DNA of 47,919 nt, taken from Solirubrobacterales bacterium. Lineage in GTDB: Bacteria; Actinomycetota; Thermoleophilia; Solirubrobacterales; 70-9. The translations under genes and the position numbers were made by a program. The notes below the pieces were generated by a model. That model was not told where the DNA came from. It made no database searches and saw only the letters and a list, made by a program, of their open reading frames with translations. This document shows positions 10,762 through 44,585 of this stretch, piece after piece; position 1 is the first letter of the stretch, and every line of letters begins with the position of its first letter. The DNA lies in the NCBI GenBank assembly GCA_020438345.1, contig JAGQUU010000079.1:1-47919 (forward strand). The letters are read 5' to 3'.

Positions 10762-13700
10762 ATGTCTGCCAACGGAATCAGTGCTGTCTCAACTGTCGCG
10801 AGCGCCTCGCTGCGGTCGGTCGGAGTCAGGATCCTGCTAGTTCTGCTCACCTCCCTGGCGGGCGTTTTCGCCTTCTCCGGCACTGCCTTTGCCGCCAGTG
10901 GCCAAGTCAAGATCCTCCCGGTCAACTATCCGCCGGCTCAACTGACCGGCACCGACGTCACCTACGTGGTGAACTTCACCTGCTCGGCGACCGAGGTTGA
11001 GATCTGCGGCGACGACCCGGAGATCCGCATCCCCATCAATCTCGACCCGAGCGCCACCCCGGTTCCGCCCTTTGACGATTGGACCTTCTCGGTGACCAGC
11101 GCTGCCACTCCCGGCCTCGTTTCCAGCTGGTCCCGCACCGGTAACGAACTGATCGTGAAGCTCGACCCGGCCAAGGTCACCCCCGGGGACTCGCTCACCA
11201 TCAACCTGGCCGTCCGACCGCCCAACCTGACCACGCCGAATGGCACCAGCTGGACCATCCTCCCGACTTACAGCTCCAGCACAATCTCGGAGACCGAAGC
11301 GCCCGAGGCGGCGCCGGGTGCCGTCAAGGCAGAAGGTGAGATCCGGGTTACCAAGGCTCCGTCCCCCTTCCAGCAGCTCTGGGTGGCCGGCAGCACCATC
11401 ACCTGGAAGATCACTGCGGATTGCAACTCGACTGGAACCTCCGGAGTCAACCTTGGCTCGCTCGCCTTCCCGGACGGCACAATGCTGGTCGATGATCTCC
11501 CCGCCGAGGTGGAATTCGTCTCGGCAAGCCCGGCACCGACATCGGCCCCGGCCGTAGGGGACACCGGTCAGGTCATCTGGGATCTTTCCGGCCCCGACGC
11601 CGCCCGCAACTGTGCGCAGGCCGGCGGTCAGCGCGACTTCGAGGTCGTGACGAAGATTCGCACCGGGCTCCCGGATGGGACCACGGTCAAGAACGTCGTG
11701 ACCCATTCGGGAACGCCGCTCGGCGAAAGCCCGATGCAGGACAAGGCCGACTGGGCGGTCACCGTGATCTCCAGTATTCCGACTCCCGGCAACAGTCTCA
11801 CCAAACGGGGCCACGGTCCGCTCGCGATGGGCGCCGCGCAACCCAACTCGGCCGAGCTCAAGGCGACCTATGCGGGACCGTGGATGGCACCTCACAACTC
11901 CTCGGTCACTGGTTGGGTCAGCCCCAGCACGTCGAATTCGGAGGTCTTGTACGACCTGGTGGTCGAGGCTCCGGCGATGCGGGACGTTTACCGGTACGAC
12001 GTGGTTGATCCGATGCCCTGCCTGGACAACAGGAGCGGTCCCTACTACGAGTCGCTCCCGGTCACCCCGCCGGTGAACGGTGTCGCCTCGGCCCCGCTTT
12101 GCGCTAATCCGGCGGTTCACCCCTACCGCCTATGGGTCTGGGCAGAGGGTCTGGACCAGGCGATCGCCAATGGTTGGCGGCCTCAGGCGATCAGAACTGA
12201 CGGCACTGCCATCGACCTGGCGCCCGTGCCTGGCTACAGCAGCATTCAAGGCAACTTCCTCGTCCCCGCCGCAGAAATTGGCGACATCACCGCCCTCCGG
12301 CTGCCGCCGACCAGCGACTTTCCGGGTCGAGTGAACGTTCGGATTGCCGGTTACGCCGATGAGACGACTGGCGACGGGGACATCCTCCGTAACGTCGCAG
12401 CCGCGTCGGTCTACGTGACCGGCGAGACCGACCCGCGGGCGAGTTGGACCCGTTCGGCCGATGTCTTCGTGCTCGAAACGCTGCCCCAGCTAGGAGTGAA
12501 GAAGTCGATGTCGACTGTCCAGTCGGACGGTCGATCCTCGATCACCCTGACCGGTTCGGCAACGCTTCCGCCAGCCGGCTACACGATGCCCGGACCCTTC
12601 GTAATCGCTGACCTTCTGCCGACCGGAATGACCCTGGGGACTCCCACGCCTGCCGACGGAAATCAACAGTTCAGCCTGCGCAAGGATGGTGTCAGCCAAG
12701 CTGCCGTCATCGGTCAGGCCGAACACATCGCCAACTTCGAAGGTACGGGCCGCACCCTCGTTCGATACACGATCCCGGCTTCTGCATTTAGCGGCGGTGG
12801 GTACTACGAAGTCTGGCCGGTCGGGACTCTTCCCGTCCGGGTCCCGGTGGAAGGACAGACCTTCATCAACAAGGCCAATGTCTTCATCTCGAACAACGGT
12901 CGCAACACCTTGAATGACTGCAGCACCCAGTTCGGCCCCTCCCACCCGCAAACACTCGAAACCGAAGATCCCCGGGATCTCGACGGAGACGGAGAGACCG
13001 ACCAGTACAACTGCTCGACCACAGCGCAGATCATCGCCCCGGCCCTCCCCGGCCCGGCTTTCGGTCTGAGCAAGCAGGTCCAGGGAGACCTCGACAATGC
13101 GGTGAAGGGTGCCGGCGAGATCGGCCTGACCACCGACGGAGGCCGGGGTGAATACACCCTCACCTGGAAGAACATCGGCTCCGAGCCGCTGACCGACCCG
13201 GTGATCTACGACATCCTGCCCCACGTCGGCGACACCGGTGTCTCTCAGGGTCAGTCCAATGTCCAGCGAGGCAGTGAGACCAGGACTCTGTTCGATTCGA
13301 TCACTGACCTGCCGACCGGAGTCACCGTCGAGTACTCCGGCTCCAGCAATCCCTGCCGCCCCGAGGTATACCCGGCCGCGCCTGGTTGCGTAAACGACTG
13401 GTCCTCGACCCCGCAGACCGACGTCAGGTCCCTGCGCTTCAAGACCATCGGCAGTTACGCGAGCGGCTCGAGCTTCTCGCTGAAGTTCAAGGTCAGCTTG
13501 CCTCTCGGCCAGACCGGGATGACCGCCTGGAACAGCGCCGCGACGGCCTCTGATTTCAACGGCTCCGCGCTGCTGCCAGCCGAGCCGCCCAAGGTCGGGT
13601 TGGTTTCCGAGCCCGCCGGCGAGGCGGATCTCGGCGTGGTCAAGACGAAGGAGTCGCCGGCGAACGTGAATACCGGTGACACGGTCACCTACGAGATCGT

Positions 13701-15576
13701 GGTGACCAATCACGGTCCGGCCGATGCGACCGGCGTCACGCTCCAGGACATCCTTCCGGACGGCCTAGAGGGCGTAACGGTCAACAACAGCGACTGCGCT
13801 GTTGCCGGGAGCGAGATCGACTGCGCACTGGGTGACCTGGCCAACGGTGCCAGCGTCACGATCACGGTGACCGGCAAGGTCAAGCCGGGTCAATCGAGCC
13901 TGGTCAACACTGCCGTGGTCGACGGCGACCTGCCCGACCCGAACCCGGACAACAACGAGGACGCGGTCACCACCCCGGTTACGCCGCAGTCTGATGTCCA
14001 AATCGTAAAGACAGTCGACGACCAGAACCCGCAGGCCGGTGACACCATCACCTACCGACTGACCGTGCGGAACAACGGACCTGATCTTGCCACCGGCGTG
14101 CGAGCCACCGATCACCTGCCGGTCGGCGTCACCTTCCTCTCGGCCGACGCACCCTGCGTCGAGGCCGGCGGCACGGTCAGCGGCGACTTTGGCAACCTCG
14201 CGCCAGGCCAGGAAGCCGACTGCGAGATCCGGGTCAGAGTGAACGGCTGGAATCCGGCCCCGACCTCGGCGGATCACGGCATCGACGTACAGAAGGTCGA
14301 GACCCAGGTTGATCTGAACCCGGGCGAGACACGGACCCTGACCGCCGAGTGCCCGACTGGCTTCTTCGTTTCGGACGGCTCTGTCCGGATCGACCACATC
14401 GACCAGGGCACCGGCAGCTGGGTTTCGCCTCAGGTGCTCGAGTCGCGTGCCAGCGATAGTCGCACTTGGCGGGGCACTGTTCGGAACACCGCTTCCGGAC
14501 GTGCCCAGGCGAAGATCTTCGCGGTCTGCATCCGTGAGACCACGAGTCCGGACACCACCGGCCACGACCTCCTGGTGACCGGCCCGGTGACCGAAACGGT
14601 CGATCTCCAGCCCGGCAACAACGAGGTAGTGCTCAACTGTCCGGTCGGTACGGTGGCGATCGCCCCCGGCTTCACCGCTGACTCGCCCGGCTACCTGGTC
14701 TACAGCCAGCCCGAAGGTGATGGTTGGAAGTTCAACTACAGCACCGACGCTGACGAGCCGAACGATCAGGTCACTTACTCGATCAGCTGTCTAGCCAGGG
14801 AGCTGGTTCAGGCTCGTGGCCACAGTCATCTGCTTAGCCTGCAGCAGATCTGGACCGAGCAGACGATCCAGCCGGGTCAGGTTCATGAAGTTCAGTTGAT
14901 ATGCCCGGACGGCAGCAGGGGTATCGTCGGTGGCTGGGATCTCGATCCCGGTCTGGTCTCCCTGGGCAACGACCCGCGTCCGGTGACCCGGGCCTTCAGG
15001 GTCTACAACACGACCGATCAACCGCTCCGGGTCCGGTACAGCCTGCTGTGCTTGGGCGATCGCACCACCAGCGGTGGGCAGGACGGGTCTAGGACCATCG
15101 TCAACACTGCCCGGGTTGTCAGCGTCACCCCGGATCCCGATCTGTCGAACAACCAGTCGTCGGTCACGGTCACGGCCACTCTGGGCGGCGGTTCAAATCC
15201 GGTCACCGACCCGATTCCGGTCGTGCCCGGCAAGCCTCCGGTGAACAATCCGACCGACCAGGACAGCCACCGGCCGGGCGTGACGCTGCTGTCGGCCAGG
15301 GTGAAGGCCGGTTCGGTCAGCATCACGCTGAAGGCGACGGGCCAGACCAGTGGCGTCGCCAAGCTGGTCACGACCAAGAAGGTCAAGGTTGGCGGCAAGC
15401 GCTACGGCAAGGGAACGGTGCTCGCCTCGGCCAGGTACTGGTTCGGTATGGCCGGCAGCAAAAAGATCAAACTGAAGTACAACCGCTTCGGCAAGCGAGT
15501 CCTCAAGCAGCGCAAGGCCAGACAGGCGAAGTTGGTCGTGGGCGGCAAGACCCTCGGTCGCTTGAAAGTTCGCTGA
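10762..15576 (+). CDS. Giant secreted DUF11-repeat protein with triple cysteine module
   Basis: This 1604-residue protein has an N-terminal signal peptide (hydrophobic core about 23-40, likely cleavage after an AFA motif near 44). A long region of Ig-like beta-domains follows, with at least two clear DUF11 domains (from about 956 and 1077, with hallmark VTNHGP and VRNNGP strings and PDNNED-type ends). Residues 1183-1265, 1280-1352 and 1369-1434 are three related modules, each with a QPG/NPG turn, a CPxG cysteine and a second cysteine near the end. A lysine-rich C-terminal beta-domain covers about 1490-1604. There is no LPXTG motif or terminal membrane anchor. It is probably a surface or matrix protein; no enzymatic motif is seen. 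The start is the first ATG before the signal peptide, with GGGGG nearby. It is the paralogue of the gene at 17021. Confidence 0.88.
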   Translation: MSANGISAVSTVASASLRSVGVRILLVLLTSLAGVFAFSGTAFAASGQVKILPVNYPPAQLTGTDVTYVVNFTCSATEVEICGDDPEIRIPINLDPSATPVPPFDDWTFSVTSAATPGLVSSWSRTGNELIVKLDPAKVTPGDSLTINLAVRPPNLTTPNGTSWTILPTYSSSTISETEAPEAAPGAVKAEGEIRVTKAPSPFQQLWVAGSTITWKITADCNSTGTSGVNLGSLAFPDGTMLVDDLPAEVEFVSASPAPTSAPAVGDTGQVIWDLSGPDAARNCAQAGGQRDFEVVTKIRTGLPDGTTVKNVVTHSGTPLGESPMQDKADWAVTVISSIPTPGNSLTKRGHGPLAMGAAQPNSAELKATYAGPWMAPHNSSVTGWVSPSTSNSEVLYDLVVEAPAMRDVYRYDVVDPMPCLDNRSGPYYESLPVTPPVNGVASAPLCANPAVHPYRLWVWAEGLDQAIANGWRPQAIRTDGTAIDLAPVPGYSSIQGNFLVPAAEIGDITALRLPPTSDFPGRVNVRIAGYADETTGDGDILRNVAAASVYVTGETDPRASWTRSADVFVLETLPQLGVKKSMSTVQSDGRSSITLTGSATLPPAGYTMPGPFVIADLLPTGMTLGTPTPADGNQQFSLRKDGVSQAAVIGQAEHIANFEGTGRTLVRYTIPASAFSGGGYYEVWPVGTLPVRVPVEGQTFINKANVFISNNGRNTLNDCSTQFGPSHPQTLETEDPRDLDGDGETDQYNCSTTAQIIAPALPGPAFGLSKQVQGDLDNAVKGAGEIGLTTDGGRGEYTLTWKNIGSEPLTDPVIYDILPHVGDTGVSQGQSNVQRGSETRTLFDSITDLPTGVTVEYSGSSNPCRPEVYPAAPGCVNDWSSTPQTDVRSLRFKTIGSYASGSSFSLKFKVSLPLGQTGMTAWNSAATASDFNGSALLPAEPPKVGLVSEPAGEADLGVVKTKESPANVNTGDTVTYEIVVTNHGPADATGVTLQDILPDGLEGVTVNNSDCAVAGSEIDCALGDLANGASVTITVTGKVKPGQSSLVNTAVVDGDLPDPNPDNNEDAVTTPVTPQSDVQIVKTVDDQNPQAGDTITYRLTVRNNGPDLATGVRATDHLPVGVTFLSADAPCVEAGGTVSGDFGNLAPGQEADCEIRVRVNGWNPAPTSADHGIDVQKVETQVDLNPGETRTLTAECPTGFFVSDGSVRIDHIDQGTGSWVSPQVLESRASDSRTWRGTVRNTASGRAQAKIFAVCIRETTSPDTTGHDLLVTGPVTETVDLQPGNNEVVLNCPVGTVAIAPGFTADSPGYLVYSQPEGDGWKFNYSTDADEPNDQVTYSISCLARELVQARGHSHLLSLQQIWTEQTIQPGQVHEVQLICPDGSRGIVGGWDLDPGLVSLGNDPRPVTRAFRVYNTTDQPLRVRYSLLCLGDRTTSGGQDGSRTIVNTARVVSVTPDPDLSNNQSSVTVTATLGGGSNPVTDPIPVVPGKPPVNNPTDQDSHRPGVTLLSARVKAGSVSITLKATGQTSGVAKLVTTKKVKVGGKRYGKGTVLASARYWFGMAGSKKIKLKYNRFGKRVLKQRKARQAKLVVGGKTLGRLKVR

Positions 15577-28967: not shown

Positions 28968-28973
28968 TAGTCT
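28968..28973 (+). promoter_or_regulatory. Candidate -10 box (TAGTCT) for the phosphotransferase gene, leaderless
   Basis: TAGTCT ends 7 nt before the ATG at 28981, with no ribosome-binding site between. Confidence 0.5.
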
Positions 28974-28980
28974 GTCGATC

Positions 28981-30018
28981 ATGAACTTCCAGACCGATGG
29001 AATCTCGCAAGGTCCGCTGGAGGAATGGTTCCGGGAGCGGGTGATCGATCTCGAGCCACCCCTGGATTACGAGAAGATCCATGGCGGCATGTCGAACCTC
29101 ACCTACCTGGTCACCGACCAGAGCGGGGCACGGTGGGTGCTGAGGCGTCCGCCACTCGGCAAGACACTCGGGTCAGCGCATGACATGGGAAGGGAAGTCA
29201 AGGTCGTGACCGCCCTGGAAGGTACCGGTGTCCCGGTGCCGCCGGTAGTCGGGTATTGCGAGGATCCGGAGGTCACGGGTGCGCCGTTTTACGTCATGGA
29301 GTTCATCGAAGGTCCGGTGATTCGGGGGCCCGAGCAGGCAGCGGCTTTCCCCGGCAAAGAACAGCGAAGCCGTCTCGGTGAAAGCCTTATCGAAACCATG
29401 GCCCGGATCCATTCGGTCGACCTGACCGATGTCGGACTGGCCGACCTCGGCCGGCACGACGGATACGTCCAGCGCCAGCTCAAGCGCTGGTCGGGCCAGT
29501 GGGAGAAATCGAAAACCCGCGACCTTCCCCTGATCGACGAAGTCCACAGTCGTCTGGTCGAGCTGGCCCCGCCGCAGTCGGCCACCACTCTGGTTCACGG
29601 TGACTACCGGCTGGACAACGTGATCTACAGCCCGTCCGGCGAGGTGGCAGCGGTGGTTGACTGGGAGCTCTGCACGATCGGGGATCCACTGGCTGATCTC
29701 GGGCTTCTGATGGTTTACTGGCGTGAATCCGGGGATCAGCCGATTCCGCTGATCACGCCCGCCACGGTCGAGCCGGGGTTTCCGAAACGCGAAGAACTGG
29801 CCGCTCGTTACGCGGAGATCACCGGCCGGGACATCTCGGCGCTCGACTATTTCGTCGCGCTCGGTTTCTGGAAGCTCGCGATTATCGCCGAGGGGGTCCT
29901 GGCCCGCTTTGCCGCGGGTCAGTACGGCGAGGATGTCAGTGAAGTCGTTGAGCGCTCAAAGGCGACGATCGACCTGCTGGTCACCCAGGCCTCACGAGCG
30001 ATCGACCGCTCCGCCTGA
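28981..30018 (+). CDS. APH-family phosphotransferase, ACAD10/11 kinase-like
   Basis: This 345-residue protein has the aminoglycoside-phosphotransferase fold: GGMSNLTYLV nucleotide loop, RRPPLGKTLGSAHDMGRE, catalytic HGDYRLDN (His206-Asn213) and the metal-binding VVDWELCTIGDPLADLG. Relatives include the kinase domain of ACAD10/ACAD11 and LvaA, which phosphorylate 4-hydroxyacyl-CoA, rather than drug-resistance kinases. The start at 28981 is supported by the TAGTCT box 7 nt upstream. It converges on an acyl-CoA dehydrogenase gene with only 2 bp between the stop codons, matching the two domains that are fused in animals. Confidence 0.85.
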   Translation: MNFQTDGISQGPLEEWFRERVIDLEPPLDYEKIHGGMSNLTYLVTDQSGARWVLRRPPLGKTLGSAHDMGREVKVVTALEGTGVPVPPVVGYCEDPEVTGAPFYVMEFIEGPVIRGPEQAAAFPGKEQRSRLGESLIETMARIHSVDLTDVGLADLGRHDGYVQRQLKRWSGQWEKSKTRDLPLIDEVHSRLVELAPPQSATTLVHGDYRLDNVIYSPSGEVAAVVDWELCTIGDPLADLGLLMVYWRESGDQPIPLITPATVEPGFPKREELAARYAEITGRDISALDYFVALGFWKLAIIAEGVLARFAAGQYGEDVSEVVERSKATIDLLVTQASRAIDRSA

Positions 30019-30020
30019 GG

Positions 30021-31250
30021 TCAGGCCGTCTCCGAAGCAGCACGCTTCTTCAGGAAGCGTCCCACTTCCCTTCTCGCAATTACCATTTTGTGGACCTCGT
30101 CCGGGCCGTCGGCGAGCCGGAGGGTACGGCTGTAACGCCACATTGCGGCGAGCGGCGTGTCCTCTGTCATGCCGAGCGCGCCGTGGACCTGGATCGCACG
30201 ATCGAGCACGTCCATGACCATGTTCGCGGCAACCACCTTGATCATTGAAATCTCCTGGCGGGCAGCCCGTTTGCCGATCGTGTCCATCTTCCAGGCGGCG
30301 TTGAGTGAAAGCAGCCTCGCCTGGTCGATCTCCATTCTCGATTTCGCAATGAAATCCTGAACGAACTGCTTGTCGGCCAACGGTCCACCGAAAGCCTCCC
30401 GGTCCGCTGCCCTCAGGCACATCATTTCCAGGGCCCTTTCAGCAGTACCGATCGCCCGCATGCAGTGGTGGATGCGGCCGGGGCCAAGCCGGTCCTGGGC
30501 GATCAGAAAGCCGGCTGCGCGGGTACCGAGCAGGTTCGCTTCGGGCACCCTGCAGTCGCGATAGATGATCTCCGCATGGCCCGGCCCCTTGTCGTGGCCC
30601 ATGACCGGCACCGGCCGGACCAGGTCGAAGCCGGGGCTGTCAACCGGCACGATGATCATCGAGGCATTCGCGTACGGGTTATCGCTTTGCTCGGTGTTCA
30701 CCATCGCGATCGCGAACTCGGCCCCGACCGCACCCGACGTGAACCACTTGTGGCCGTTGACGATCCATTCGTCGCCTTTGAGTTCGGCCCGGGCAGCCAG
30801 ACCGGTCGGATCGGAACCGGCGGTGTCGGGCTCGGTCATCGAGAAACAGCTTCGGATGTCGCCGTTCAGGAGAGGCTCGAGGTACTTCGACTTCTGCTCA
30901 TCGGTGCCGTGCTCAAGGAGGATTTCCATGTTGCCGGTATCCGGAGCGGAGCTGTTGAAGGCCATCGGGGCACAAAGCGGACTGCGTCCCATCTCTTCAC
31001 AGAGAAAGGCGTATTGCCAGTTGTTGAGGCCGGCTCCGTATTCCTCGTCCGGGAGGAAGAGGTTCCAGAGACCCTCCGACCTGGCCTTTTCGCGGATCTC
31101 GACCAGGGCGGCCGGATAGGCGACACCGGGCTTGACTTCGTCATCGAGCGCCTGATGCAGCTCTGCTTCCCGCGGGAAGATGTGCTCGTCCATGAAAGAG
31201 CGGACACGTTCGAGGAGACCTTCAACTTCAGCACCTGCTTCGAAATCCAT
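30021..31250 (-). CDS. Acyl-CoA dehydrogenase, ACAD10/11-like
   Basis: This 409-residue flavoprotein has the ACAD signatures SMTEPDTAGSDPTG (substrate/FAD loop), NGHKWFTSGA, and QVHGALGMTEDTPLA near the C-terminus, ending in DGPDEVHKMVIAR. That last motif and an HHCMRAIG helix are typical of the ACAD10/11-FadE branch, where the usual catalytic glutamate position differs. It is expected to act on an acyl-CoA in fatty- or hydroxy-acid breakdown. The ATG at 31250 has TAGCGT 7 nt upstream. The neighbouring APH-like kinase on the other strand is the probable partner. Confidence 0.92.
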   Translation of the reverse strand: MDFEAGAEVEGLLERVRSFMDEHIFPREAELHQALDDEVKPGVAYPAALVEIREKARSEGLWNLFLPDEEYGAGLNNWQYAFLCEEMGRSPLCAPMAFNSSAPDTGNMEILLEHGTDEQKSKYLEPLLNGDIRSCFSMTEPDTAGSDPTGLAARAELKGDEWIVNGHKWFTSGAVGAEFAIAMVNTEQSDNPYANASMIIVPVDSPGFDLVRPVPVMGHDKGPGHAEIIYRDCRVPEANLLGTRAAGFLIAQDRLGPGRIHHCMRAIGTAERALEMMCLRAADREAFGGPLADKQFVQDFIAKSRMEIDQARLLSLNAAWKMDTIGKRAARQEISMIKVVAANMVMDVLDRAIQVHGALGMTEDTPLAAMWRYSRTLRLADGPDEVHKMVIARREVGRFLKKRAASETA

Positions 31251-31257
31251 GGGTCGG

Positions 31258-31263
31258 ACGCTA
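31258..31263 (-). promoter_or_regulatory. Candidate -10 box (TAGCGT) for the acyl-CoA dehydrogenase, leaderless
   Basis: TAGCGT ends 7 nt before the ATG at 31250. Confidence 0.45.
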
Positions 31264-32122: not shown

Positions 32123-33115
32123 TCAGGAGTAGTCGTGCCAGCCTTCGAAATCCCGGCCGGACCATTCCTTCAACCCGGCCACATCCTCACGGAAGTGACC
32201 TTTCAGGGTTTCCATCAGATCATCCGGAATCTCCGGTTTGGGGGCCGGGGGCTTGTCCGGGTCATGGACAACCTTTTCGACCATCCAGCGCATCGACTCG
32301 GGTAGCCGGTCGAAGTTCCGGTCAAATGCCCGGAAGCCGGGAAGTTTGATCAGCTTCTCCATGAACTGGTACTTGTCGTCATGTTTGGCCGAGGATTTCT
32401 CCCACTGGCGGTCCCACTGCTCGGAAGTGAAGTTCTCGTCAACGCCAAGGAAAGTGAAGGCCTGCCGCATGGTCGCGTCCCGTTCGCGCCCGAGATCCTC
32501 CTGGGTGATGATTTCGATCTGGTCGCGGTCGAAATACTCGAGGTAGGGCTGAAGCTGCATCCAGTACTGGGAACGCTGGATGTACGCAGAGTCAGCCTGC
32601 TCGAGGGTCGGGGCGAACTCGCGGGTCTCGTAGCCGGCACCGGTCGCGTGGACCCAGTGGGAAAGGATCCGCTTGATTGGATCGCGGACCATGTAGATCA
32701 ACTTCACATCGGGGACATGCTTGCTGATCCGTTCGGCAACCCCGTTGAAACGAGGGCGGTTCGTGTAGTGGGGGGAGGACTCGCCGTTGATCTTCACCGA
32801 GCTGTCAAAGCGGTTCTCGTACCAGTCGAAACCGAGATCCCAGTTCTGTTCGGCGGCAAAGAAGTTGAGTTCCTTCGGCTTCGACATGTGGATTTCGGGG
32901 TGAAGGCCCAGGTAGTGATGAATCGAGGTCGTTCCACACTTGAGGCCACCGATGATGATCATGTTCGGCAAGGTGGCCGTCTTGCTCTTCCGGCGTGGGA
33001 GCCGGCGGTTGCGATCCGCCGTGAATCGCTCGCGTGCGCGCGAGCACATGGCGTCGTCAGCCGGGTCGTAGGTGGCCTCGGGGGCGGTCACGTTTGTATC
33101 GGGTGTTTTTGACAC
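32123..33115 (-). CDS. Sulfotransferase
   Basis: This 330-residue enzyme carries the PAPS 5'-phosphosulfate loop IIGGLKCGTTSIHHYL (about 52-67) and the 3'-phosphate motif VRDPIKRILSHW. The family transfers sulfate from PAPS to a carbohydrate or lipid hydroxyl; the substrate is unknown. A basic N-terminal stretch (RRLPRRKSK) precedes the fold. I place the start at the GTG at 33115, which has TACACT 8 nt upstream. The frame stays open further but would then run through the promoter and into the divergent gene. It is divergent from the DUF2804 gene. Confidence 0.88.
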   Translation of the reverse strand: MSKTPDTNVTAPEATYDPADDAMCSRARERFTADRNRRLPRRKSKTATLPNMIIIGGLKCGTTSIHHYLGLHPEIHMSKPKELNFFAAEQNWDLGFDWYENRFDSSVKINGESSPHYTNRPRFNGVAERISKHVPDVKLIYMVRDPIKRILSHWVHATGAGYETREFAPTLEQADSAYIQRSQYWMQLQPYLEYFDRDQIEIITQEDLGRERDATMRQAFTFLGVDENFTSEQWDRQWEKSSAKHDDKYQFMEKLIKLPGFRAFDRNFDRLPESMRWMVEKVVHDPDKPPAPKPEIPDDLMETLKGHFREDVAGLKEWSGRDFEGWHDYS

Positions 33116-33122
33116 GGCCGAG

Positions 33123-33128
33123 TAGTGT
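33123..33128 (+). promoter_or_regulatory. Candidate -10 box (TAGTGT) for the DUF2804 gene, leaderless
   Basis: TAGTGT ends 8 nt before the ATG at 33137. It overlaps by five bases the -10 box of the divergent sulfotransferase gene. Confidence 0.5.
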
Positions 33129-33129
33129 A
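33124..33129 (-). promoter_or_regulatory. Candidate -10 box (TACACT) for the sulfotransferase, leaderless
   Basis: TACACT on the - strand ends 8 nt before the GTG at 33115, offset by one base from the opposing TAGTGT box. Confidence 0.5.
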
Positions 33130-33136
33130 ACCGGGA

Positions 33137-34045
33137 ATGACCGATCCGATCCTTGCCGCGTCTCTTGCGGCCTCTCCTCCGGAAGTTGGCATTCGGAAGC
33201 TCCCGTGGCGCGGACCCTCCGGCGAACGGCCGGACCTGCCGATCCCCCCGGCCCGTCAGCCGCTGTTCCACAAGGGGCTCATGCGCAAACGCTGGCGATA
33301 CGTCGGCTTGTACGGAGATGAAGTGATGCTGTGCGCGGGCGTGGTCCGGATCGGAATCTTCAACCACACGTTCTGGTCAGTCTGGGACCGCAACGCGGCT
33401 GGAGGGGAAGGCCGGGTCTTCGAGCACACCCACCTGCGCCCTGGCCGCCCGGAGGTGATCCTCGACGGACCGCGGGTCCAGGTCAGGAGCGCCGAAGTCG
33501 AGGCGGATCTTCGTTTTGGCGAGATTGAACCGATCGAAGTGGTCAGTCCGAACGGCCGTGGCTGGGGATGGACCCGCAAACGGGCCGGTGTGCCGGTCAA
33601 CGGCCGGATTACAGCGGGCGATCGTTCCTTCAACGTGAGTGGATTCGGGGTCGACGACGAATCGGCCGGGTATCACGCCCGCAAAGTGAGCTGGTTCTGG
33701 TCGGCGGGAATAGGAGTGGCTACAGATGGCCGGGCCCTGGGCTGGAATCTGACCGAGGGGATAAACGATGCGCCGACTTGCAGCGAACGGGCGGTCTGGG
33801 TGGATGGTGTTCCCCGCGAACCGGCTCCGGTCCGGTTTGACGGACTCGAGGCAGTGAGCTTTTCTGATGATGCCGAGCCAGGGCTCCGGTTTCATTTCAG
33901 CGGTGCTGAACGCCGGCGCAATGACAACTTCGGGTTGATCCGGTCTGACTATGTGCACCATTTCGGTGAGTTCAGGGGTCGGCTCGACGGCATCGAACTG
34001 GCCTCCGCCGCCGGCGTGATGGAAGAACACAAGGTCACCTGGTGA
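33137..34045 (+). CDS. DUF2804 domain protein
   Basis: This 302-residue protein matches the DUF2804 pattern as I recall it: repeated beta strands, SYHARKVSWFWSAG-like core, then GWNLTEGINDAPTCSER and VWVDG. The fold is thought to be lipocalin-like and its function is not established. There is no signal peptide or membrane segment. Only 21 bp separate its ATG from the start codon of the divergent sulfotransferase gene, and both -10 boxes sit inside that gap. Confidence 0.8.
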   Translation: MTDPILAASLAASPPEVGIRKLPWRGPSGERPDLPIPPARQPLFHKGLMRKRWRYVGLYGDEVMLCAGVVRIGIFNHTFWSVWDRNAAGGEGRVFEHTHLRPGRPEVILDGPRVQVRSAEVEADLRFGEIEPIEVVSPNGRGWGWTRKRAGVPVNGRITAGDRSFNVSGFGVDDESAGYHARKVSWFWSAGIGVATDGRALGWNLTEGINDAPTCSERAVWVDGVPREPAPVRFDGLEAVSFSDDAEPGLRFHFSGAERRRNDNFGLIRSDYVHHFGEFRGRLDGIELASAAGVMEEHKVTW

Positions 34046-42590: not shown

Positions 42591-44585
42591 TCAGGCCGGG
42601 CCGGCGACCTGGGCCTGAAGCTCCTCGACAACCGACGGGTCACGCAGGGTGCTGACGTCGCCGAGTTCCTTGCCGTCGGCGATGTCGCGGAGCAGACGAC
42701 GCATGATCTTGCCCGAACGGGTTTTGGGCAGGTCGTCCGCGAAATAGATCGCTTTCGGGCGGGCCAGCTTGCCGATTCGATCGGCCACATGTTCCCGCAG
42801 TTCGTCGGTGAACTCGCTGCCGGGAGGAGCTTCGTCATTGGGGGTCGCGAAAGCGATGATCGCCTGACCGGTGAAGTCATCGGGTATCCCGATCACCGCT
42901 GCCTCGGCGACATGCGGATGGGAGACCAGCGACGATTCAATTTCCATCGTTGAGAGACGGTGTCCGGAGACATTGATCACATCGTCGATCCGGCCGACCA
43001 CCCAGAAGTAGCCATCTTCATCGCGACGGGCGGCATCGCCGACCAGGTAGGTCTCCTTTCCGTAGCGGTCCCAGTAGGCGTTGAAGTACCTTTCCGGTTC
43101 CTTGAACAGGCTCCGCACCATCGCTGGCCAGGGGCGGGTCAGAACCAGGGTTCCTCCGCCTTCCTCGATCTCGTTTCCGTTGTTGTCATAGATCGCGGCC
43201 TTGATTCCGGGGAGGGTGGTCGTGGCCGAGCCCGGCTTGGTCGTAGTGATCCCCGGCAGCGGGGAGATCATCATCGCCCCTGTCTCGGTCTGCCACCAGG
43301 TGTCCACGATCGGGCAGCGGCTGCCGCCGATGTGCTCGTGGTACCAGAGCCATGCCTTCGGGTTTATCGGTTCGCCAACCGACCCGAGCAGTCGTAGCGA
43401 AGTCAGGTCGTGGGCGGCCGGGAGCTCCTCGCCCCACTTCATGAAAGACCGGATCACGGTCGGGGCTGTGTAGAGGATGGTCACTCCGTAGCGCGCGACG
43501 ATCTCCCACCAGCGATCACGGGTCGGAAAGTCAGGTGCGCCCTCGAACATGATCGAAGTAGCGCCATTGGCGAGCGGGGCGTAGACGATGTAGGAGTGGC
43601 CGGTGACCCAGCCGATGTCCGCCGCACACCAGAACACGTCGTCGGTCTTGAGATCGAAAACCATCTGGTGGGTCGCCGAAGCCTGGGTCAGGTAACCGCC
43701 GGTGGTATGGACGATCCCTTTTGGCTTCGCGGTCGAGCCGGAGGTGTAGAGCAAGAAGAGCGGATCTTCGGCATCCATCGGCTCCGGTTCGCATTCCGGG
43801 CTGGCCGCAGACAGGGAAGATGCCCAGTCGATGTCACGACCCTGCTTGAGCGGAGGTTCGGTGCCACAGCGGTCGAACACGACCACAAGTTCCATCTCCG
43901 GCAGGCTGTCGAGGGCATCGTCGATCGCCGCTTTCATGGGCATCGGTTCGCCGCGTCTGAGAGTGGCATCGGCAGTGATCAGGGCCCTGGCCTCCGAGAA
44001 CGCCATCCTCTCTCGCAGAGATTCGGCGGAGAACCCGCCGAAGACCACGTTGTGGATCGCCCCGATACGGGTGCAGGCCAGCATCGCGACTGCGGCTTCC
44101 GGAACCATCGGCATGAAGATCCCGACTACGTCGCCCTTGCCGATGCCGTTTTCCTTGAGGACATTCGCGAGACGCCTTGTCTGGTCATGGAGCCAGCTGT
44201 ACGTGACCGAGATTCGTCCCCCGGAATCGCTGCCGACTCCGGTCACCGGCATGTCTTCCGGTCCGGCGTCTTCGGCTTCCCAGTGGTAGGCGATCCGGTC
44301 GCCGCGGCCCGCCGCCACATGTCGGTCAAGGCAGTTCGCGCTGACGTTCAGTTTGCCGCCGGCGAACCATGTTGCGTGGGGCGGGTCGCTCCAGTCCAGC
44401 ACCGTGTCCCAGGGTTCGATCCAGTCGAGCTTTGCGGCCCAGTCAGCCCACCAGCCTTCCGGATCGGCGTCCGCCCGGTCATAGACCTCAGGGTCGTTGA
44501 ATTCGGCATTCGACGCGAAATCAGGTGGTGGGGGAAATGTCTGCTCGGTCTTGAGCAGAACATCAAGTTCTGACTGATCGGCCAT
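42591..44585 (-). CDS. acs: Acetyl-CoA synthetase
   Basis: This 664-residue AMP-forming ligase activates acetate to acetyl-CoA. Visible motifs: WFAGGKLNVSANCLDRH, the P-loop YTSGSTAKPKGIVHT, DTWWQTETGA, YLVGDAARRDEDGYFWVVGRIDDVINVSGHR, and the acetylation-prone lysine (about 626) in KTRSGKIMRR. The ATG at 44585 has GGAGGAG at good spacing. It ends 24 bp from the stop of the convergent beta-helix gene. The product feeds citrate synthase elsewhere in the window. Confidence 0.96.
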   Translation of the reverse strand: MADQSELDVLLKTEQTFPPPPDFASNAEFNDPEVYDRADADPEGWWADWAAKLDWIEPWDTVLDWSDPPHATWFAGGKLNVSANCLDRHVAAGRGDRIAYHWEAEDAGPEDMPVTGVGSDSGGRISVTYSWLHDQTRRLANVLKENGIGKGDVVGIFMPMVPEAAVAMLACTRIGAIHNVVFGGFSAESLRERMAFSEARALITADATLRRGEPMPMKAAIDDALDSLPEMELVVVFDRCGTEPPLKQGRDIDWASSLSAASPECEPEPMDAEDPLFLLYTSGSTAKPKGIVHTTGGYLTQASATHQMVFDLKTDDVFWCAADIGWVTGHSYIVYAPLANGATSIMFEGAPDFPTRDRWWEIVARYGVTILYTAPTVIRSFMKWGEELPAAHDLTSLRLLGSVGEPINPKAWLWYHEHIGGSRCPIVDTWWQTETGAMMISPLPGITTTKPGSATTTLPGIKAAIYDNNGNEIEEGGGTLVLTRPWPAMVRSLFKEPERYFNAYWDRYGKETYLVGDAARRDEDGYFWVVGRIDDVINVSGHRLSTMEIESSLVSHPHVAEAAVIGIPDDFTGQAIIAFATPNDEAPPGSEFTDELREHVADRIGKLARPKAIYFADDLPKTRSGKIMRRLLRDIADGKELGDVSTLRDPSVVEELQAQVAGPA

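What the first reader, a model, noticed from the sequence alone, without database searches (positions are those of the whole stretch)
28981..31250. Convergent APH-like kinase and acyl-CoA dehydrogenase: split ACAD10/11
The two proteins correspond to the kinase and dehydrogenase domains fused in animal ACAD10/ACAD11, which, with bacterial LvaA-type kinases, process 4-hydroxyacyl-CoAs through a phosphorylated intermediate. Here they are separate, on opposite strands with 2 bp between stops, each with its own leaderless promoter. This predicts growth on 4-hydroxy acids or gamma-lactones.
Basis: partly seen in the sequence, partly recalled or inferred. Interest (0 to 1): 0.55.

Follow-up and report, generated by a model that had tools for sequence, protein, structure and literature searches.

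The report
Split ACAD11-like kinase and dehydrogenase pair
Two bacterial genes that face each other encode the two enzyme halves that animals fuse into ACAD10/ACAD11 to burn 4-hydroxy fatty acids; the enzymes are of a known kind, but their lasting head-on arrangement, and a third ACAD10-like gene beside them in related bacteria, are worth testing.

Summary
An APH-fold kinase (28981-30018, +) and an acyl-CoA dehydrogenase (31250-30021, -) converge with 2 bp between stops. The dehydrogenase carries the ACAD10/11 signature (Arg upstream, HCMR, catalytic Asp instead of Glu); the other own-genome dehydrogenases readable there do not. The kinase keeps the matching catalytic and CoA-contact residues. 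Both are closer to mouse ACAD11 (36%, 47% identity) than to a LvaA/LvaC pair (30%, 36%); drug-kinase models score far below cut-off. The LvaB family (DUF6285) is absent from the genus. So this is an unfused ACAD11-type pair, not LvaA-type. Leaderless starts are supported: TANNNT lies 5-11 nt before the start in 13/13 genus kinases and 14/14 dehydrogenases, against 3/65 and 1/70 control windows. All 23 family genomes with both orthologues on one contig have them convergent. Growth on 4-hydroxy acids or lactones is not predicted by anything nearby. Beyond the finding: in 22 of 51 relatives with the kinase a HAD gene lies within 200 bp of it, so ACAD10's three domain types occur as separate genes (all three together in part of the window's family); the window's genus lacks it. 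New member of a known kind; moderately interesting.

The parts
28981..30018 (+). APH-fold kinase, ACAD10/11 kinase-domain type (345 aa)
   Evidence: Pfam APH 9.3e-53; PDB relatives 9o56, 3dxp, ACAD11 8v3v; R71-E72, R165, D208, N213, D227 conserved in 79 of 79 aligned relatives
30021..31250 (-). acyl-CoA dehydrogenase of ACAD10/11 (LvaC-like) type, with HCMR motif and catalytic Asp (409 aa)
   Evidence: 47% identical to mouse ACAD11 dehydrogenase domain; R254, R259, H262-C-M-R265, D381 match ACAD11 R626, R631, 634-637, D753
28968..28973 (+). TANNNT (TAGTCT) -10-like element, 7 nt before the kinase ATG
   Evidence: 13 of 13 genus kinases have TANNNT ending 5-11 nt before the start, against 3 of 65 control windows
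31258..31263 (-). TANNNT (TAGCGT) -10-like element, 7 nt before the dehydrogenase ATG
   Evidence: 14 of 14 genus dehydrogenases, against 1 of 70 control windows
30019..30020 (.). 2-bp gap between the convergent stop codons
   Evidence: sequence; convergence kept in all 23 family genomes with both orthologues on one contig

Best explanation
An unfused ACAD11-type pair. Step 1 (inferred): the kinase uses ATP to phosphorylate the 4-hydroxyl of a 4-hydroxyacyl-CoA, with D208 as catalytic base and R71/R165 holding the CoA. Step 2 (inferred): the dehydrogenase, using FAD and Asp381 instead of the usual Glu, with R254/H262/R265 gripping the 4-phosphate, removes the phosphate in a redox-neutral reaction to give a 2-enoyl-CoA. 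Step 3 (general knowledge): enoyl-CoA hydratases take the product into beta-oxidation. Shown here: the genes, the residues, the relationships, the conserved convergence and the conserved leaderless-type -10 elements. Each gene is probably transcribed on its own as a leaderless mRNA. The role is more likely clearance or salvage of 4-hydroxy acids than dedicated growth on them.
For: Dehydrogenase 47.2% identical to the mouse ACAD11 dehydrogenase domain, 36.2% to a LvaC; kinase 36.4% to the ACAD11 kinase domain, 29.6% to a LvaA. All signature residues present; D381 in 111 of 111 and H262 in 110 of 111 aligned relatives. The other own-genome dehydrogenases lack them: 6 of the 7 could be read at the catalytic position, all with a canonical EGT Glu, and 5 of the 7 at the HCMR position, none with it. 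Bacterial orthologues from B. pseudomallei replaced either half of ACAD10 in vitro (PMC11342911, passages). Kinase and dehydrogenase co-occur: both in 50, kinase only in 1, dehydrogenase only in 3, neither in 7 of 61 genomes (Fisher p 2e-6, not corrected for kinship). Convergent in 23 of 23 family genomes with both orthologues on one contig. Seven enoyl-CoA hydratase-family and seven AMP-binding matches in the own genome.
Against: No activity, substrate or expression data. Many relatives elsewhere lack the partner close by: 42 of 80 dehydrogenase loci had no kinase in the DNA held, and 18 of 29 phylum-wide kinase loci had neither dehydrogenase nor HAD within about 1.5 kb, so kinases of this clade may serve other substrates. 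In family f3 the closest dehydrogenase (69-74%) is not next to the kinase. HCMR counts are partly by construction: one search used IHHCMRAI as one of six search patterns.
Confidence: 0.8

Rival explanations
1. The kinase phosphorylates another small molecule or another hydroxyacyl-CoA, and its nearness to the dehydrogenase is only inherited gene order.
For: Kinases 43-57% identical across the phylum often have no dehydrogenase within about 1.5 kb (18 of 29 loci had neither dehydrogenase nor HAD); the two genes cannot form one operon here; the nearest family f3 dehydrogenases are unlinked to the kinase.
Against: Co-occurrence 50/1/3/7; convergence kept while the other neighbour of the kinase changed (HAD in sister genera, histidine kinase in the window); CoA-contact Arg conserved in 79 of 79.
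Confidence: 0.14
2. LvaA/LvaC-type levulinate or 4-hydroxyvalerate pathway that supports growth.
For: Same two enzyme families; LvaC also has HCMR and the Asp.
Against: 29.6% to LvaA; DUF6285/LvaB absent from all 18 genus genomes searched (LvaB is DUF6285); LvaA groups with a DUF6285-partnered kinase, away from the window; no lva-like reductase or synthetase next to the pair.
Confidence: 0.05
3. Aminoglycoside or macrolide phosphotransferase (resistance gene).
For: APH fold; the nearest solved structure, 9o56, is named 'Aminoglycoside phosphotransferase' by its depositors.
Against: APH(3') model 39.7 bits against a cut-off of 205, Mph models about 19 bits against 500-650, while the ACAD11 kinase domain scores 164. 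In the tree 9o56 sits among Bacillaceae kinases that lie on the same strand near an ACAD11-type dehydrogenase. No resistance enzyme was itself put in the tree.
Confidence: 0.01

Closest known systems
Mammalian ACAD11 (PDB 8v3u/8v3v; PMC12440821)
   Same: kinase and dehydrogenase domains with the same catalytic and phosphate-binding residues; no HAD part
   Different: one fused chain in animals; here two genes on opposite strands
Mammalian ACAD10 (PMC11342911)
   Same: same two enzyme activities predicted; in its mature form the dehydrogenase is also separate from the kinase
   Different: ACAD10 has an N-terminal HAD domain that restrains the kinase; the window's genus has no linked HAD gene, though sister genera do
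LvaA/LvaB/LvaC of the Pseudomonas lva operon
   Same: separate genes for kinase and dehydrogenase; HCMR and Asp in LvaC
   Different: more distant in sequence; one operon with LvaB, LvaD and LvaE; here no LvaB and a convergent layout
PDB 3dxp (kinase) and 4hr3 (dehydrogenase), free-standing solved proteins
   Same: closest free-standing solved relatives together with 9o56 (35.7% and 47.6% identity)
   Different: function not given by the molecule names shown; 4hr3 has HAMR in place of HCMR

Membership tests
ACAD10/11-type dehydrogenase (4-phosphoacyl-CoA) | Arg upstream of HCMR, the HCMR motif, and catalytic Asp instead of Glu | tested here: met
   R254, H262-C263-M264-R265, D381; the other own-genome dehydrogenases readable at these sites do not have them (residues named in PMC12440821)
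ACAD10/11-type kinase (4-hydroxyacyl-CoA) | Catalytic Asp and Asn, metal-binding Asp, CoA-contact Arg equivalent to R176 and the Arg beside the alphaC Glu | tested here: met
   D208, N213, D227, R165, R71-E72. The paper's number R86 does not fit the PDB chain (Arg-Glu at 83-84), so that one is matched by description. The metal-binding role of D227 is recalled.
ACAD10/11-type kinase (4-hydroxyacyl-CoA) | Groups with the ACAD11 kinase rather than LvaA or drug kinases | tested here: met
   SH-aLRT 85 for the branch joining it with ACAD11 and proteobacterial kinases, LvaA outside (quick tree, distant outgroup, no drug kinase in it); drug kinases by model scores only
ACAD10/11 | Kinase and dehydrogenase fused in one chain | tested here: not met
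   separate convergent genes
ACAD10 | HAD domain | tested here: not met
   no HAD gene beside the kinase in the 14 genus genomes with the kinase orthologue; the only matches there are about 34-41% identical and unlinked
lva operon system | LvaB (DUF6285) subunit | tested here: not met
   0 of 18 genus genomes; LvaB = PF19802; window genome 73.7% complete
lva operon system | linked LvaD-type reductase and LvaE-type synthetase in one operon | tested here: not met
   neighbours are histidine kinase, response regulator, RibD_C, sulfotransferase, DUF2804
Aminoglycoside/macrolide phosphotransferases | score above the curated model cut-offs | tested here: not met
   39.7 of 205 bits; about 19 of 500-650 bits
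ACAD10/11 and LvaAC enzymes | turnover of 4-hydroxyacyl-CoA via 4-phosphoacyl-CoA | not testable with these tools
   needs purified enzymes

The most novel reading that the evidence does not exclude
In Solirubrobacterales-type actinobacteria the complete ACAD10 parts list exists as separate genes: a HAD protein with only the first Asp of the DxD motif (as reported for ACAD10), an ACAD11-type kinase and an ACAD10/11-type dehydrogenase. In these cells the HAD protein would act in trans as the brake on the kinase, so the regulation found in animals predates the gene fusion. The window's genus has lost the brake and keeps a minimal, ACAD11-like pair in a convergent layout.
Probability: 0.3. Interest if true: 0.6.

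Novelty: new member of a known kind. Interest (0 to 1): 0.42.

Why it matters
ACAD10/11 were assigned to 4-hydroxy-acid breakdown only in 2024-2025, and the role of ACAD10's HAD domain is open. A bacterial set in which the parts are separate genes, with one genus lacking the HAD, would let that role be tested with simple purified proteins. PMC12440821 states that the HAD domain has no homologue in the lva operon (passage); here a HAD gene lies within 200 bp of an ACAD11-type kinase in 22 genomes.

Tried and rejected
A drug-resistance kinase was rejected on model scores. LvaA-type was rejected on identity, tree position and the missing LvaB. I considered that loss of the second HAD Asp marks kinase-linked HADs only; rejected, because unlinked paralogues also read DFGGV (L144, L146, L147). 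As a caveat from recall, some HAD enzymes with DxG motifs are active, so the motif does not prove a pseudo-enzyme. A consensus promoter and terminator scan gave nothing beyond chance. A direct comparison with the ACAD10 HAD sequence was not possible: no eukaryotic genome is held, and no ACAD10 chain came up in the PDB search. I made no structure predictions, because solved relatives exist. Papers: PMC11342911, PMC12440821 and PMC6692424 were seen as passages; Rand et al. 2017 is not held and is cited through them. The listings showed no paper whose title or abstract start describes a bacterial HAD-kinase-dehydrogenase cluster; most subscription journals are not held.

Rows dropped: the L104 kinase from the promoter count (contig end); partial hits below the coverage limits; identical sequences merged; the trees used a chosen part of the loci. 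One search covered 149 genomes and gave loci for the best matches only; the 29 other than the window were examined. One search covered 41 genomes of the 61 used.

Full report
Observation. The two ORFs are real and placed as stated: kinase 28981-30018 (+) and dehydrogenase 31250-30021 (-), with two bases between the stop codons. Pfam gives APH for the first and the three acyl-CoA dehydrogenase domains for the second. The window lies in a 73.7%-complete, 2.15-Mb draft genome in 278 contigs; the nearest named records are uncultured Solirubrobacterales and Thermoleophilia.

Identity of the dehydrogenase. Its best solved relatives are 4hr3 and ACAD11. It is 47.2% identical to the mouse ACAD11 domain and 36.2% to LvaC of a Pseudomonas plasmid lva operon. 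PMC12440821 reports R626, the HCMR motif (634-637) and catalytic D753 as the features that let ACAD11 handle 4-phosphoacyl-CoA (passages). The window has R254, H262-C-M-R265 and D381 at those places. PDB chain numbers are one lower than the paper's. Seven other dehydrogenase matches were found in the own genome; six of them could be read at the catalytic position and all six have a canonical EGT Glu, and none of the five readable at the HCMR position has the motif. Among 111 aligned relatives, D381 is in 111, R265 in 111, H262 in 110 and C263 in 107; one of the six patterns used to find part of these was IHHCMRAI, so the HCMR count is partly by construction.

Identity of the kinase. Best solved relatives are 9o56, 3dxp and ACAD11; identities are 37.9%, 35.7% and 36.4%, against 29.6% for LvaA and no significant match to thiamine kinase. 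The catalytic and CoA-contact residues are kept in 79 of 79 aligned relatives. The paper's R86 does not fit the chain (Arg-Glu at 83-84), so that position is matched by its description. In a 67-row quick tree the window falls among actinobacterial kinases, in a wider group with ACAD11 and proteobacterial kinases (SH-aLRT 85, modest), while LvaA joins a DUF6285-partnered Thermus kinase. Rooting used distant ThiK and long branches are flagged, so the deep order is uncertain. APH(3') and Mph models score far below cut-off.

Not the lva system. LvaB is Pfam DUF6285; it is absent from all 18 genus genomes and found in 4 of the 41 genomes searched, 3 of them above the cut-off. No LvaD- or LvaE-like gene was identified next to the pair. 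The acyl-CoA synthetase-like gene found in the window is an acetyl-CoA-synthetase-like ORF at 42591-44585, 11 kb away.

Arrangement. The 37 family genomes (G000-G036) split as follows: 23 have both orthologues on one contig, all 23 convergent; 6 have them on different contigs (in G003 and G011 both genes lie at or near contig ends); 2 have only a distant relative of at least one (G012, G020); 2 only the dehydrogenase; 1 only the kinase; 3 neither. Gaps in the 23 are under 200 bp in 15, 450-1649 bp in 6, 5.9 kb in one and 18.4 kb in one; in the last, the flanks on both sides match the window's flanks. These genomes are related, so 23 is not 23 independent events. Among the 80 dehydrogenase loci, 7 are convergent, 27 co-directional, 4 divergent and 42 without a kinase in the DNA held. 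Co-occurrence over 61 genomes is 50 both, 1 kinase only, 3 dehydrogenase only, 7 neither.

Expression. TANNNT ends 5-11 nt before the start in 13 of 13 genus kinases and 14 of 14 genus dehydrogenases, against 3 of 65 and 1 of 70 equal-width control windows; no Shine-Dalgarno-like motif was flagged. This fits leaderless mRNAs with separate promoters. The species are related, so the counts are not independent. In five congeners (L091, L093, L094, L095, L108) the TAG stop of the upstream gene, RibD_C by position and by its C-terminal residues, is also the first half of the dehydrogenase's TANNNT. Start sites are inferred, not measured.

The HAD gene. In L113 a HAD protein is encoded head to head with the kinase. 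It matches the epoxide-hydrolase-N-terminal-like HAD model TIGR02247 at 105.9 bits, below its cut-off of 125.4, and soluble epoxide hydrolase in the PDB. By comparing, 22 of 51 relatives with the kinase have such a gene within 200 bp of it: 10 in the window's family (divergent from the kinase, other genera) and 12 in two sister families (downstream of the kinase, same strand). None of the 14 genus genomes with the orthologous kinase has one there; the only matches are 34-41% identical and unlinked. In Saccharopolyspora (L083, L084) HAD, kinase and dehydrogenase follow one another on one strand, in the domain order of ACAD10. In a sample of 29 phylum-wide kinase loci, 5 had the HAD, 6 the dehydrogenase and 18 neither within about 1.5 kb, so the link is recurrent but far from universal. 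The HAD proteins have DxG at the DxD motif, as PMC11342911 reports for ACAD10 (passage), but unlinked paralogues do too. PMC12440821 says the HAD domain has no homologue in the lva operon. Homology of these HADs to the ACAD10 HAD domain in particular was not tested.

Mechanism. Shown: genes, residues, relationships, linkage, promoter-like motifs. Inferred: phosphorylation of a 4-hydroxyacyl-CoA, redox-neutral removal of the phosphate, entry into beta-oxidation. The genome has seven enoyl-CoA hydratase-family and seven AMP-binding matches. Substrate chain length and physiological role are open; salvage or detoxification fits better than dedicated growth because no uptake, activation or lva-type regulatory gene was found clustered with the pair. 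A histidine kinase and a response regulator lie next to the kinase gene on the other strand; whether they have anything to do with it is unknown.

Verdict. The pair is a new member of a known kind with an unusual, conserved convergent layout.

Noticed in passing
L113:2293-2943 and 21 other relatives: A HAD gene lies within 200 bp of the kinase in 22 of 51 relatives with the kinase, giving the three domain types of ACAD10 as separate genes; absent beside the kinase in the window's genus.
   Followed up: partly
L091, L093, L094, L095, L108: The TAG stop codon of the upstream RibD_C-like gene doubles as the first half of the dehydrogenase's TANNNT -10 element.
   Followed up: partly
L096-L097 (G010), L118 (G032): About 18 kb and 6 kb lie between the two convergent genes, with matching flanks on both sides, so the spot between the stops tolerates insertions. 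Contents not annotated.
   Followed up: no
L083:3053-6203, L084: HAD, kinase and dehydrogenase genes on one strand in the domain order of ACAD10, in Saccharopolyspora.
   Followed up: no
PDB 9o56: Named 'Aminoglycoside phosphotransferase' by its depositors but groups with kinases encoded near ACAD11-type dehydrogenases; the name may be misleading.
   Followed up: partly
L154 (NZ_MF344569.1 208500-217500): An lva-like operon lies on a Pseudomonas aeruginosa plasmid; its LvaB matches Pfam DUF6285, which gives that family a likely role.
   Followed up: partly
window 10762-15576: A 1604-aa ORF with DUF11 repeats, probably a surface protein.
   Followed up: no
window 32123-33367 and 33137-34045: A sulfotransferase-domain gene and a DUF2804 gene on opposite strands upstream of the dehydrogenase side; the listed ORFs overlap if the longest sulfotransferase start is used.
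   Followed up: no
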